Shown here: piece after piece, positions 39,652 through 48,428 of the stretch
Position numbering within the stretch: position 1 is the first letter of the stretch
Layout of the letters: each line of letters starts with the position of its first letter
Origin: Mycolicibacterium fluoranthenivorans
GTDB taxonomy: Bacteria; Actinomycetota; Actinomycetes; Mycobacteriales; Mycobacteriaceae
Direction of reading: 5' to 3'
DNA length: 64,000 bases
NCBI RefSeq assembly: GCF_011758805.1
Contig: NZ_JAANOW010000001.1
Span: forward strand, 806,001 to 870,000
Translations under genes and position numbers: made by a program
Notes under the pieces: generated by a model
Told to the model about the DNA's origin: nothing
Seen by the model: only the letters and a program-made list of their open reading frames with translations
Database searches by the model: none

Positions 39652-39678
39652 GGGAACTCTTTGCGGTGTCGGGACGAC
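39652..39678 (+). promoter_or_regulatory. ECF promoter box 1 (GGGAAC-N17-CGAC), ctpB
   Basis: GGGAAC at 39652-39657, a 17-base spacer and CGAC at 39675-39678, 55 bases upstream of the ctpB ATG. It is one of seven identical-geometry copies in this cluster; the -35 GGAAC is typical of ECF sigma factors. Confidence 0.7.
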
Positions 39679-39732
39679 TGTTGATAGCGGGGCCAGGGCC
39701 CACGCAGATGGAGAGGGAGGTGAGGTTTCGCG

Positions 39733-42021
39733 ATGACCGCAGCACCGACGACGGCAGATGACGTGGTCGACGAAGTTCAGCGACTTCAGCTGACCATCTC
39801 CGGGATGTCGTGCGCAGCGTGCGCGGGCCGCGTCGAATCCGTGCTGAACAAGCAGCCCGGTGTCCGAGCCTCAGTGAACTTCGCCACTCGAGTCGCCACC
39901 ATCGAAGCCGACCGGGACGCCGAGGCCACCGACCTCTGCGGAGTCATCGAACGCGCGGGTTACGAGGCGCGGGTGCGCGACGCCGGCGCCGAACGTGATG
40001 ACGATCCCGACGCCGATCACGCCCGCTACCTGATGGTCCGGCTGGCCGTCGCCGCTGTCCTGTTCGTGCCACTGGCCGATCTGTCGGTGATGTTCGCCGT
40101 CGTGCCCAGCACCCGCTTCACCGGATGGCAATGGCTGCTGACCGCCCTGGCCATGCCGGTGGTGATCTGGGCGGCGTGGCCGTTCCACCGAGTGGCGTTG
40201 CGGCAGGCCCGTCACGGCGGAGCCACGATGGAGACGCTGATCTCGGTCGGCATCACCGCCGCGACCGCGTGGTCGCTGTACACCGTCTTCGGCCACCAGC
40301 ACGCCCGCGAGGGCATCGGCATCTGGCAGGCGATCGTCGGCAGTGACGCCATCTACTTCGAGGTGGCCGCCGGCGTGACCGTCTTCGTACTGGCCGGCCG
40401 ATATTTCGAGGCCCGCGCCAAATCGAGAGCCGGCGGTGCCCTCCGCGCGCTGGCGGCGCTGAGCGCCAAGGACGTCACCCTTCTGCTGCGGGACGGGACA
40501 GAGCTGGTCATTCCCGCCGACGAACTCGCCGAACAACACCGCTTCGTGGTCCGGCCCGGCCAGACCATCGCCGCCGACGGGTTGGTCCTGGAGGGGTCCG
40601 CCTCGGTCGATATGAGCGCGATGACGGGCGAAGCCAAGCCGCACCGCGTCGACGCCGGCGACAGCGTCATCGGCGGCACCGTGGTGCTGGACGGCCGGCT
40701 CATCGTGGAGGCGGCTGCCGTCGGCGCCGACACCCGATTCGCCGGGATGGTGCGACTGGTGGAAGAGGCCCAGGCGCAGAAGGCCGACACCCAGCGGCTG
40801 GCAGATCGCATCGCCTCGGTTTTCGTCCCCGTCGTTTTCGTCATCGCCGCACTGACCGCGACTGGGTGGCTGCTGGCCGGCGGTGGGTCGGCGCAGGCAT
40901 TCTCCGCCGCGCTCGCCGTCCTGGTGATCGCCTGCCCCTGCGCACTGGGGCTGGCCACCCCGACCGCGATGATGGTGGCCTCGGGGCGGGGCGCTCAGCT
41001 GGGCATCTTTCTCAAGGGACACCGATCGTTGGAGGCCACCAAGGCGGTGGACACCGTGGTTTTCGACAAGACCGGCACGCTGACCACCGGTCGCTTGTCG
41101 ATCAGCGCCATCACCGCCGCACCGGGATGGGAAGCAGACGACCTGCTCGCCCACGCAGCGGGAGTCGAATCGGCATCCGAGCATGCCGTCGGGCTGGCGA
41201 TCACCTCGGCGTGCCCGCACGTCCCGGCTGTCGAGGACTTCGTCGCTGCGCCCGGCCGCGGTGTCAGCGGGAGGGTGGGCGACCGGTCGGTGCGGGTGGG
41301 CAAGCCGTCCTGGATCGCTGCCGGCCGCGCCGTGCCCGCGGTGGCCGCCGCCCGCAGGCAGGCCGAAGCCCGCGGTGAAACAGTCGTCTTCGTCGAGATC
41401 GACGGGCACGTGTGCGGTGCGATCGCGGTGTCCGACGGAGTCAAGGACTCCGCCGCCCGCGCCGTGGCAGCCCTGCACGCCCGGGGCTTGCGCACCGTGC
41501 TCCTGACCGGCGACAACGCCGCCGCGGCCGCCGCGGTGGCCGCGCAGGTCGGTATCGACGACGTGATCGCCGACGTGCTGCCCGACGGCAAGGTGGATGT
41601 CATCGAACAGCTCCGCGACCGCGGGCGGGTCGTGGCGATGGTGGGTGACGGCATCAACGACGGGCCCGCGCTGGCATGCGCCGATCTGGGGATGGCGATC
41701 GGCCGCGGCACCGACGTGGCGATCGGCGCCGCCGACATCATCCTGGTCCGCGACGACCTGGTGGTGATCCCGTTGGCCCTCGATCTCGCGTCAGCCACGA
41801 TGCGCACCATCAAGGTGAACATGATCTGGGCTTTCGGATACAACATCGCGGCCATCCCGATCGCCGCCGCCGGGCTGCTGAATCCGCTGATCTCCGGCGC
41901 GGCCATGGCCTTCTCGTCATTCTTCGTCGTCACGAACAGCTTGCGGTTGCGAAACTTCGCCGCCACCAAGCGTTCTTCGCGCCGGGCAAGGGAGATCGCC
42001 GATGGCTCAGCAGACTTGTGA
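39733..42021 (+). CDS. copper-transporting P1B-type ATPase, CtpB-like
   Basis: 762 aa. N-terminal HMA domain with GMSCAAC at 24-30 (Cys27, Cys30). Eight membrane helices are expected. The intramembrane CPC is at 401-403, phosphorylation motif DKTGT has Asp445, TGE is in SAMTGEAKP, and GDGINDGPA is present. The usual SEHP is SEHA here (ESASEHAVGL). CtpA/CtpB/CtpV-type ATPases move Cu(I); in M. tuberculosis ctpB lies near the nrp locus and Rv0102. It has a GGAGAGGGAGGTGAGG RBS and an ECF box upstream. Likely a member of the sigC-linked copper set; direction of transport is not certain from sequence. Confidence 0.9.
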   Translation: MTAAPTTADDVVDEVQRLQLTISGMSCAACAGRVESVLNKQPGVRASVNFATRVATIEADRDAEATDLCGVIERAGYEARVRDAGAERDDDPDADHARYLMVRLAVAAVLFVPLADLSVMFAVVPSTRFTGWQWLLTALAMPVVIWAAWPFHRVALRQARHGGATMETLISVGITAATAWSLYTVFGHQHAREGIGIWQAIVGSDAIYFEVAAGVTVFVLAGRYFEARAKSRAGGALRALAALSAKDVTLLLRDGTELVIPADELAEQHRFVVRPGQTIAADGLVLEGSASVDMSAMTGEAKPHRVDAGDSVIGGTVVLDGRLIVEAAAVGADTRFAGMVRLVEEAQAQKADTQRLADRIASVFVPVVFVIAALTATGWLLAGGGSAQAFSAALAVLVIACPCALGLATPTAMMVASGRGAQLGIFLKGHRSLEATKAVDTVVFDKTGTLTTGRLSISAITAAPGWEADDLLAHAAGVESASEHAVGLAITSACPHVPAVEDFVAAPGRGVSGRVGDRSVRVGKPSWIAAGRAVPAVAAARRQAEARGETVVFVEIDGHVCGAIAVSDGVKDSAARAVAALHARGLRTVLLTGDNAAAAAAVAAQVGIDDVIADVLPDGKVDVIEQLRDRGRVVAMVGDGINDGPALACADLGMAIGRGTDVAIGAADIILVRDDLVVIPLALDLASATMRTIKVNMIWAFGYNIAAIPIAAAGLLNPLISGAAMAFSSFFVVTNSLRLRNFAATKRSSRRAREIADGSADL

Positions 42022-42069
42022 CCTCCAGGGGGTGCGATGTGGCGGATGATCAAGGTGACGGCCTTACCC

Positions 42070-42525
42070 TCACCCGGCGTGGTGTGCCCGCATCTCGGGT
42101 TGTGACCGTTCGATAGGCGTCGTCGCCACCGCGACCCAACCGACGGTCAGCAGTACGGCCATGACGTCGGCGACGGCCAGCCAGGTCAACGCCGCGCCGG
42201 GCCGGCCGGTGTGAAGCCACCAGAACGCGCCGATCCCGAGTACGGCGGCCAACCCGCACGCATATGCCGCCGTACAGCAGATCCGGAAGCGGCGAAATGC
42301 CAACGCCGCCAAGGACGCCAGTGCGGCGAAGACCAAGATCCCCACCGTCACCGCCGGTATCCGGTTCGCCCCGTGCGTCGAGTGCTCGCCCGCAGCGTCA
42401 CCCCACCAGGCCACCGTGGCCGCTGCCAATATGGCGGTCATCGCCACGTGGATCGCCGTGCGCCGGCGCCCGATCCAGATATCGTCGAGGACGCGGTGCT
42501 CGATAGCTGCGAGTGCGCGCACCAT
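42070..42525 (-). CDS. small membrane protein of copper/ECF cluster
   Basis: 151 aa with about four hydrophobic helices, a short N-terminal cytosolic helix (AAIEHRVLDDIWIGRRR) and a pair of cysteines (RICCTAAYACG). No named domain recognised. ATG 42525 has a GGAAG RBS five bases upstream; the frame extends to 42627 but the promoter box (42594-42620) lies inside that extension, so a start at 42525 or GTG 42549 is more plausible. Convergent with ctpB. Possible metal-associated membrane protein; unknown. Confidence 0.65.
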   Translation of the reverse strand: MVRALAAIEHRVLDDIWIGRRRTAIHVAMTAILAAATVAWWGDAAGEHSTHGANRIPAVTVGILVFAALASLAALAFRRFRICCTAAYACGLAAVLGIGAFWWLHTGRPGAALTWLAVADVMAVLLTVGWVAVATTPIERSQPEMRAHHAG

Positions 42526-42593
42526 GGCACTTCCGTAGGAATCCGACACCCGGGCTACCCCCTTTGTTGCCTGCACAGTTGGTCGTTCGATTG

Positions 42594-47638: not shown

Positions 47639-47646
47639 ACGCCCGC

Positions 47647-48354
47647 TCAGGCGGCCGAACCGTCGGTGGGCCACAGATGGCCTCGACGCCTGCCGCGTGA
47701 GGCGTTGTGCGGCAACACGATATCGGGTTCCGATTCGGCGGCCCGCTGCTCGGGGCCCGGGGTCACGGTGCGCCTCCACACCAGTACCGCGAGGATGGCG
47801 CCCAGCACGACGGGCAGATGTGTGAGCACCCGGGCCGCGGTGACCGCGCCGTCCATCGCGTCGATGACCACGTACGCGCCCAGCACGCCCGCGAACACCG
47901 ACAACACCCCGGCCAGCCCGGCTGCTGCGGCCGGACGGATGGCGGCCACGATCATCACGACACCGAGCGCCAATGACCACGCGGTCGACTCATTGAGCAG
48001 ATGTCCCGACACGGCCATGCCGTGGTGTTGGGCCAGGCCGAGGTTCAGGCCCACGCCCTGTGCGGCGGCGACGGCCACCTGCGTCACGCCCACCGCCAGC
48101 AGTGCGGTTCTGCGCCAGTCCCGCAGCGGCCGGCGCGTTCTGTGCGTCCGCGCGTGCGGCTCGTGGGAAACGGCGGCCAGGGGCGGCTCTGCTGCGAGCA
48201 TCCGAAGGCGAGCCGACTGCGTCGTCACCTGCTGAAGCCAACCGCGGCAGTCGGCGCACGTGTCGAGGTGCTCGTCCACCCGTGCCGACGGCACCGGCTC
48301 GCGCTCACCGTCGATTCGAGCCGACAGCGCTTCGCGCGCGACATCACATTCCAC
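47647..48354 (-). CDS. zinc-finger (zf-HC2/ZAS) anti-sigma-like membrane protein
   Basis: 235 aa. Residues 1-45 form a ZAS-type domain: MECDVAREALSARIDGE then HLDTCADCRGW (H-x3-C-x2-C with the N-terminal Cys). This binds ECF sigma factors in many systems. The rest has an Arg-rich linker and several membrane helices (about 88-205). It is transcribed from an ECF box (48364-48390) back-to-back with that of the PepSY gene. It is a good candidate for the missing anti-sigma factor of the SigC-like protein, acting as feedback; this is a hypothesis from sequence alone. Confidence 0.75.
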   Translation of the reverse strand: MECDVAREALSARIDGEREPVPSARVDEHLDTCADCRGWLQQVTTQSARLRMLAAEPPLAAVSHEPHARTHRTRRPLRDWRRTALLAVGVTQVAVAAAQGVGLNLGLAQHHGMAVSGHLLNESTAWSLALGVVMIVAAIRPAAAAGLAGVLSVFAGVLGAYVVIDAMDGAVTAARVLTHLPVVLGAILAVLVWRRTVTPGPEQRAAESEPDIVLPHNASRGRRRGHLWPTDGSAA

Positions 48355-48363
48355 GTCTCTATA

Positions 48364-48390
48364 GTCGCTGATGCCGCGGCGAATGTTCCC
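48364..48390 (-). promoter_or_regulatory. ECF promoter box 6 (minus strand), zf-HC2 gene
   Basis: Minus-strand GGGAAC (48385-48390), 17 bases, CGAC (48364-48367), just upstream of the ATG at 48354; the leader is at most a few bases. Confidence 0.7.
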
Positions 48391-48401
48391 GCCAACCTCA
48401 T

Positions 48402-48428
48402 GGGAACTATTCAGGAAGACCGTCCGAC
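48402..48428 (+). promoter_or_regulatory. ECF promoter box 7, PepSY gene
   Basis: GGGAAC (48402-48407), 17 bases, CGAC (48425-48428), 61 bases before the ATG at 48490. Only 11 bases separate its -35 from that of the divergent box 6. Confidence 0.7.

What the first reader, a model, noticed from the sequence alone, without database searches (positions are those of the whole stretch)
39652..48428. Seven identical-geometry ECF promoters define a candidate SigC copper regulon
The same two blocks, GGGAAC (one copy CGGAAC) then CGAC with exactly 17 bases between, occur at 39652, 42594 (minus), 42692, 43530 (minus), 46962, 48364 (minus) and 48402. Each points at a gene of one cluster: CtpB-like ATPase, small membrane protein, WhiB-like, CopC, DUF5134, zf-HC2 protein and PepSY. 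With ten fixed bases I estimate well under one chance hit in the whole window. A SigC-like ECF sigma factor lies at the edge of the cluster. The pattern was read by eye and not scanned exhaustively. Seen: the motif and genes. Inferred: that SigC is the sigma factor and copper the theme.
Basis: partly seen in the sequence, partly recalled or inferred. Interest (0 to 1): 0.87.

Follow-up and report, generated by a model that had tools for sequence, protein, structure and literature searches.

The report
SigC copper-starvation regulon with leaderless anti-sigma
In this environmental mycobacterium eight copies of one promoter stand before a compact set of copper-handling genes, very probably read by the sigma factor SigC encoded next door; one of the genes looks like SigC's own brake and could explain how SigC senses copper shortage.

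Summary
The eight sites precede genes; the other 25 exact sites of the genome lie inside coding-like frames (rough test). Around 80 relatives of the neighbouring ECF factor, spacer 17 gives 177 sites, every other spacer 2-20: the promoter belongs to this sigma group. The ECF factor passes NCBI's SigC model. The same promoter precedes ctpB and ppe1 homologues, published SigC targets in M. tuberculosis, where SigC counters copper starvation.

Sharpened here: the zf-HC2 gene is a probable membrane anti-SigC (putative rscA in print). In all 42 exact-motif cases of 63 examined its start codon lies 10-11 bases after CGAC, implying a leaderless mRNA. It co-occurs with the sigma factor (34 of 43 genomes versus 3 of 108, those three with stops). 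CtaG here has no SigC site but a conserved BlaI-like palindrome. The published SigC-anti-sigma fusion carries that palindrome, a ribosome site and a conserved start before SigC, so it may be only nominal. No expression data were available.

The parts
39070..39624 (-). ECF sigma factor, SigC type
   Evidence: NF007231 SigC equivalog 224.4 bits, cut-off 219; 66% and 60% identical to the two solved domains of M. tuberculosis SigC
39652..39678 (+). SigC-type promoter of ctpB, 55 bases before the ATG
39733..42021 (+). CtpB-like copper P1B ATPase
   Evidence: TIGR01511 500.6 bits, cut-off 397; HMA domain; orthology to M. tuberculosis CtpB itself not tested
42070..42525 (-). Rv2732c-like membrane protein (likely start ATG 42525; frame open from ATG 42627)
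   Evidence: NF050115 38.1 bits, below its cut-off of 60, match begins at residue 37 of the long frame
42594..42620 (-). SigC-type promoter, downstream one of a tandem pair
42633..42659 (-).
42692..42718 (+). SigC-type promoter with CGGAAC, before WhiB
42727..43080 (+). WhiB-family regulator (start ATG 42727, 9 bases after CGAC; annotated frame from 42721)
   Evidence: PF02467 82.5 bits
43094..43480 (-). CopC
   Evidence: PF04234 58.3 bits
43530..43556 (-). SigC-type promoter of copC, 50 bases before the ATG
44920..46884 (-). CtaG-domain membrane protein (CtiP/Rv0102-like by recall), no SigC site in its direction
   Evidence: PF09678 293.6 bits on the frame 44920-47046; ATG at 46884 inferred from the frame
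46928..46946 (.). palindrome CTACGAC-N5-GTCGTAG, BlaI-like operator ahead of CtaG
   Evidence: conserved in relatives
46962..46988 (+). SigC-type promoter of the DUF5134 gene
46997..47638 (+). DUF5134 membrane protein (GTG 46997 lies 9 bases after CGAC; the frame's ATG 46991 lies only 3 bases after it)
   Evidence: PF17197 127.4 bits
47647..48354 (-). zf-HC2/DUF2275 membrane protein, candidate anti-SigC (putative rscA)
   Evidence: PF13490 39.2 bits, PF10039 28.4 bits, both over cut-off; invariant HxxxCxxC
48364..48390 (-). SigC-type promoter of zf-HC2, GTG 10 bases after CGAC
48402..48428 (+). SigC-type promoter of the PepSY gene, back to back with 48364-
48490..50070 (+). PepSY_TM membrane protein
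   Evidence: PF03929 209 bits

Best explanation
The eight sites are promoters of the adjacent SigC-type ECF sigma factor (ECF36 group). In copper shortage SigC is freed and transcribes a local copper-acquisition and copper-delivery set: ctpB, an Rv2732c-like membrane protein, a WhiB regulator, copC, a DUF5134 membrane protein, a PepSY membrane protein, and its own brake. The brake is the zf-HC2/DUF2275 protein, a zinc-type anti-sigma domain on a predicted four-helix membrane anchor; its mRNA starts at or next to the start codon (leaderless), so the brake is remade whenever SigC fires. Shown here: the motif, its positions, its linkage to this sigma group, the fixed start-codon distance, and the co-occurrence of sigma and zf-HC2 genes. 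Inferred from published M. tuberculosis work: copper starvation as trigger. Inferred only: SigC binding to the sites, anti-sigma action, the leaderless start, and copper sensing by the membrane part.
Against: No expression or binding data. No genome-wide excess of the motif. 21 of 63 zf-HC2 genes lack an exact site in the 160 bases upstream, and 9 of 80 loci have no exact GGGAAC site. 9 of 43 sigma-bearing genomes have no zf-HC2 match, 5 of the 34 shared ones are weak (E 1e-10 or worse), and one sigma-bearing genome (G104) has a zf-HC2 match with stops. NCBI's own anti-sigma model is far below cut-off (19.8 of 100 bits); Foldseek finds no match at E<=0.001. SigC is listed in a review as controlled by conformational change (PMC8999054, passages). 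The M. tuberculosis SigC promoter letters themselves were not seen, so identity of the motifs is by target, not by sequence.
Confidence: 0.72

Rival explanations
1. The promoters are SigC promoters, but zf-HC2 is not SigC's anti-sigma factor: SigC is kept inactive by contact between its own two domains, and zf-HC2 is just another envelope or copper protein of the regulon.
For: PMC8999054 (passages) gives the conformational model for SigC; PMC7924339 (passage) says no anti-SigC has been identified; 9 of 43 sigma-bearing genomes lack a zf-HC2 match; the apparent fusion has an internal SigC start.
Against: zf-HC2 with HxxxCxxC is the usual anti-sigma signature; co-occurrence and decay with the sigma gene; it and ctpB are the two commonest targets; profile's only PDB match up to E 1 is the anti-sigma factor RsiW, E 0.027.
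Confidence: 0.2
2. The regulon answers to another signal, such as failing cytochrome oxidase, zinc or cobalt/nickel shortage, and copper is only one route to it.
For: A NicO transporter with a cobalamin-riboswitch-like leader lies inside the cluster; isonitrile lipopeptide genes were tied to zinc (PMC9147137, passage); CtaG proteins serve oxidase assembly (PMC9145763, passages).
Against: NicO has no SigC site; CtpB-like is a copper-type ATPase and CopC a copper-family protein; the M. tuberculosis sigC mutant is sensitive to copper, not zinc, limitation (PMC9600254, passage).
Confidence: 0.15
3. A different ECF sigma factor with a similar -35 (for example SigM- or SigH-type) reads these sites.
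For: Many ECF -35 boxes share GGAAC (recalled); M. tuberculosis sigma factors cross-regulate (PMC4821874, passages).
Against: CGAC with exactly 17 bases is enriched around this sigma group; CGTC in its place gives 7 at N17, no peak.
Confidence: 0.06
4. Chance clustering in GC-rich sequence.
For: 32 exact sites genome-wide against 25 in the reversed control.
Against: 7 in the window versus 0.40 expected, gene-start positions, and conservation in relatives.
Confidence: 0.01

Closest known systems
M. tuberculosis SigC (Rv2069, ECF36) copper-starvation regulon: ctpB and ppe1-nrp
   Same: SigC-type factor; ctpB among the targets; in relatives ppe1 and isonitrile-type genes carry the same promoter.
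   Different: Here sigC adjoins its targets, eight promoters lie in 8.8 kb, CopC, PepSY, DUF5134, WhiB and an Rv2732c-like gene are included, and the exact motif marks no other promoter-like place in the genome. The sigma factor is only 60-66% identical to M. tuberculosis SigC in its two domains.
Putative rscA / Rv0093c anti-SigC (PMC6917791, PMC7563442; passages)
   Same: zf-HC2 protein near sigC; one gene apart as in loci L005 and L006, as reported for M. marinum.
   Different: Prior reports rest on annotation and position. Promoter, fixed start distance, co-loss with sigma, and the doubt about the fusion are added here.
Membrane zinc-type anti-sigma factors (RsiW, MucA and kin)
   Same: N-terminal helical domain resembling MucA; profile hit to RsiW, E 0.027; HxxxCxxC.
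   Different: Four predicted membrane helices with a conserved His-containing loop; own transcription unit instead of an operon with sigma in most loci.
CtiP/CtaG copper delivery to cytochrome oxidase (PMC9145763, passages)
   Same: A CtaG-domain membrane protein lies in the cluster beside CopC.
   Different: In this window it carries a BlaI-like palindrome and no SigC site. In two distant loci (L053, L061) CtaG does have a SigC-type site.

Membership tests
SigC (ECF36) sigma factor | Passes the SigC equivalog model | tested here: met
   224.4 bits, cut-off 219; margin small; no sigma tree was built
SigC (ECF36) sigma factor | Close sequence relation to M. tuberculosis SigC | tested here: met
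   Best PDB matches are the two SigC domains, E 2.7e-35 and 2.6e-20; 66% and 60% identity
SigC copper-starvation regulon | Promoters before ctpB and ppe1-nrp-type genes | tested here: met
   ctpB in the window; ctpB 48 sites, PPE 8, TauD 7 in relatives; this window has no ppe1-nrp site
SigC copper-starvation regulon | SigC-dependent induction in copper shortage | not testable with these tools
   Needs RNA data
Zinc-type anti-sigma factor | zf-HC2 domain with HxxxCxxC | tested here: met
   PF13490 39.2 bits, cut-off 22.2; H29, C33, C36 invariant in 46 sequences
Zinc-type anti-sigma factor | Anti-sigma domain fold | tested here: inconclusive
Zinc-type anti-sigma factor | Binds and inhibits its sigma factor | not testable with these tools
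   The fused-frame model was too poor to judge contacts (pLDDT 53)
Leaderless gene | Transcription starts at or within a few bases of ATG/GTG | tested here: inconclusive
   Start fixed 10-11 bases after CGAC in 42 of 42 exact-motif genes; no 5' ends measured

The most novel reading that the evidence does not exclude
The zf-HC2/DUF2275 protein is the missing copper sensor of SigC: a four-helix membrane anti-sigma factor whose conserved His-containing loop (GHLLNESTAW block; H118, E122 and H179 invariant) holds copper while SigC is bound and releases SigC when copper is withdrawn, with feedback restored through a strictly leaderless mRNA conserved across several actinobacterial families.
Probability: 0.35. 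Interest if true: 0.75.

Novelty: new variant of a known kind. Interest (0 to 1): 0.55.

Why it matters
PMC7924339 names as open how M. tuberculosis senses copper deficiency and says that no anti-SigC has been identified. A compact environmental SigC cluster with promoters, targets and a candidate anti-sigma factor side by side makes that question testable. It also gives a sharp promoter definition (GGGAAC-N17-CGACTA) for finding SigC targets, including possible new metallophore clusters, and warns that the reported SigC-anti-sigma fusion may be only an open frame with an internal SigC start.

Tried and rejected
Large dispersed regulon: rejected, because the motif is not in excess genome-wide and the other 25 exact sites look intragenic. 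The GC3 test is rough; of the GGAAC-only sites outside the cluster I fetched seven.

Leaderless pattern as a genome-wide marker: GGGAAC-N17-CGAC-N9-RTG and the CGACTA form are not specific over 151 genomes; many hits are one conserved coding word. Only hits directly at zf-HC2 starts are informative.

Fusion as proof of partnership: six loci (L066, L067, L071, L073, L074, L077) have zf-HC2 and SigC in one frame and 455 proteins match that frame (120 listed). The linker holds the BlaI-like palindrome, a ribosome site (AAGGTGG in five of six, AGGGTGG in L066) and the SigC start, and that Met is invariant in 50 aligned sequences; I count the fusion as weak support only.

Folds: fused-frame model not used (pLDDT 53). 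For zf-HC2 the membrane part matches unrelated helical bundles such as VKOR and a tetraspanin, which I disregard.

Not done: a sigma-factor tree, a weight-matrix scan, a comparison of the window's ATPase with M. tuberculosis CtpB. PMC9147137 (passage) says CtpB homologues are conserved only in intracellular pathogens; the ctpB-like genes beside sigC in many environmental loci sit uneasily with that, unresolved here.

Literature: searches in the held open-access library showed no description of this promoter with this anti-sigma geometry; I saw listings, abstracts or passages only, no whole paper. Papers asked for and not held. C. glutamicum SigC work and inclusion of sigC in the BlaI regulon are recalled, not seen.
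Full report
Observation. The exact scan finds GGGAAC-N17-CGAC seven times in the window, at 39652+, 42594-, 42633-, 43530-, 46962+, 48364- and 48402+, against a mean of 0.40 in 100 shuffles and a maximum of 2. The CGGAAC variant is at 42692+. The window lies in a 6.41 Mb genome in six contigs; the best named relatives of its sigma factor are Mycobacterium and Mycolicibacterium species. 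The genome holds 32 exact sites against 25 for the reversed control, and 101 against 140 for the shorter GGAAC form, so there is no general excess; but 7 of the 32 lie within 8.8 kb. I fetched the other 25 with 1 kb flanks: all 25 lie inside coding-like open frames by a rough GC3 test.

Genes. Pfam and NCBIfam give a SigC-equivalog ECF factor (224.4 bits, cut-off 219), a copper-type P1B ATPase (500.6 bits, cut-off 397), an Rv2732c-like membrane protein (38.1 bits, below its cut-off of 60), WhiB, CopC, DUF5134, zf-HC2 with DUF2275, and PepSY_TM. Two genes within the cluster have no such site in their direction: a NicO transporter and a CtaG-domain protein. The likely start codon follows the last C of CGAC by 55 bases (ctpB), 50 (copC), 62 (PepSY), 9 (WhiB, DUF5134) and 10 (zf-HC2).

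Does the promoter belong to this sigma group? In their 1.46 Mb, GGGAAC-Nn-CGAC occurs 177 times at n=17 and 2 to 20 times at each other n from 12 to 22; replacing CGAC by CGTC leaves no N17 peak. GGAAC-Nn-CGACTA occurs 77 times at n=17 and 6 times in total at the ten other spacers; 71 of 80 loci hold at least one exact GGGAAC site. These genomes are related, so counts are not independent, but they include Mycobacterium, Mycolicibacterium, Gordonia, Williamsia, Nocardia, Amycolatopsis, Saccharothrix, Kutzneria, Saccharopolyspora and Micromonospora (two bins labelled Bifidobacterium breve, L044 and L075, look mislabelled).

Targets across relatives. Of 243 GGAAC-N17-CGAC sites in the 80 loci, 193 have a plausible downstream frame and 50 do not. 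The 193 match ctpB 48 times, zf-HC2 41, PepSY 19, DUF5134 19, ECF 5, Rv2732c-like 4, CtaG 2, and none of the window's proteins 55 times. Four of the five ECF cases are Micromonospora loci, which may be autoregulated, the fifth is L041; the two CtaG cases are L053 and L061. By position the motif also stands before a WhiB gene in L021, L025 and L031. Among the 55 others Pfam finds PPE (8), TauD (7), AMP-binding (4), Penicillinase_R (4), DJ-1/PfpI (3), Peripla_BP_2 (3), DUF5134 (3), FecCD (2), P450 (2), a PLP enzyme (2) and more (25 of 57 families shown). PPE, TauD and AMP-ligase genes belong to the make-up of the ppe1-nrp isonitrile lipopeptide operon (recalled). In M. tuberculosis, ctpB and ppe1-nrp are the direct SigC targets, with almost identical predicted SigC boxes (letters not seen), and SigC counters copper starvation (PMC7924339, abstract and passages); CtpB acts in low copper (PMC9147137, passages); the sigC mutant is sensitive to copper, not zinc, limitation (PMC9600254, passage). 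The inference of SigC and copper is therefore well supported by homology. In one unnamed 2.2 Mb genome of another genus (G126, ECF factor present, no zf-HC2 match) the motif with CGACTAT stands 10 bases before the GTG of a PepSY_TM protein.

The zf-HC2 gene. Of 63 zf-HC2 genes in the 80 loci whose upstream region is in the locus, 42 have an exact motif upstream and 21 do not. In all 42 the start codon, ATG or GTG, lies 10 or 11 bases after the last C of CGAC; automatic start choice gives 41 cases, 39 at 10 and 2 at 11, with 24 GTG and 17 ATG. The conserved letters are GGAAC (mostly GGGAAC or TGGAAC), a G three bases before CGAC (35 of 42), CGACTA (T 37, A 39 of 42) and the start codon, while the spacer varies. 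No room is left for a ribosome site; a leaderless mRNA is the simplest reading. The 41 loci concerned fall into 17 clusters at 65% protein identity. ctpB, PepSY and DUF5134 show no such fixed distance.

The fusion. Six loci have both proteins in one frame, and their sigma parts are the closest of the 80 to M. tuberculosis SigC (85-87% and 80-90% identity in the two domains; the window's factor 66% and 60%). The linker DNA, however, holds CTACGAC-N5-GTCGTAG, a ribosome site, and the SigC start ATG, and that Met and four residues coded by the palindrome (T254, T255, R258, R259) are invariant in 50 aligned sequences. SigC is therefore probably also made from its own start there.

A second regulator. 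The palindrome stands in the window at 46928-46946, ahead of CtaG. In the 80 loci the core TACGAC-Nn-GTCGTA occurs 33 times at n=5 and never at n=0-4 or 6-10. Of the 32 listed with longer arms, 25 lie within 200 bases of the CtaG match's start, six are the fused loci ahead of sigC, and one is ahead of zf-HC2 (L013). This genome has one further exact copy (L149, just after a HAD hydrolase gene), and a copy with one mismatch between its arms upstream of its best Penicillinase_R (BlaI-type) match (L150). I read it as a BlaI-type operator; this is inference. In 34 loci with a CtaG start, none has a SigC-type site upstream of the estimated start; two, L053 and L061, have one beyond the estimated start, and these are the two that one search places before a GTG of the CtaG frame.

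Mechanism. Most likely, copper shortage releases SigC from a membrane anti-sigma factor; SigC transcribes copper import and handling genes and, leaderlessly, its own brake. The sensing step is the least certain. Verdict: observation confirmed, interpretation supported; a variant of a known regulon, with a testable candidate for an open question.

Noticed in passing
window 46928-46946; L001-L080: Palindrome CTACGAC-N5-GTCGTAG ahead of CtaG, with gap 5 only (33 sites) in relatives; looks like a BlaI-type operator.
   Followed up: partly
L066, L067, L071, L073, L074, L077 (linker between zf-HC2 and sigC): The zf-HC2-SigC open frame contains that palindrome, a ribosome site and the SigC start, so the reported fusion may be nominal.
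   Followed up: partly
window 38811-39050, minus strand: Cobalamin riboswitch match (37 bits, cut-off 31.5) that points into the whiB-like and citrate synthase genes on the other strand; its target is unclear.
   Followed up: no
window 43634-43767, plus strand: Weaker cobalamin riboswitch match (23.6 bits, below cut-off) directly upstream of the NicO transporter.
   Followed up: no
L059 and L065 (Saccharothrix): SigC-type sites before FecCD permease, PLP-enzyme and methyltransferase genes in both, with a P450 in L065: a possible SigC-controlled metallophore cluster.
   Followed up: no
L017, L021, L028, L029, L032, L040, L045: TauD-family dioxygenase genes of isonitrile type lie behind the motif near sigC in seven loci.
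   Followed up: no
G040, G106, G143: Three genomes of one genus without the sigma factor keep a zf-HC2 match with in-frame stops.
   Followed up: no
L056, L068, L069, L078 (Micromonospora): A SigC-type site lies 118-200 bases before the sigma gene itself, suggesting autoregulation in this genus.
   Followed up: no
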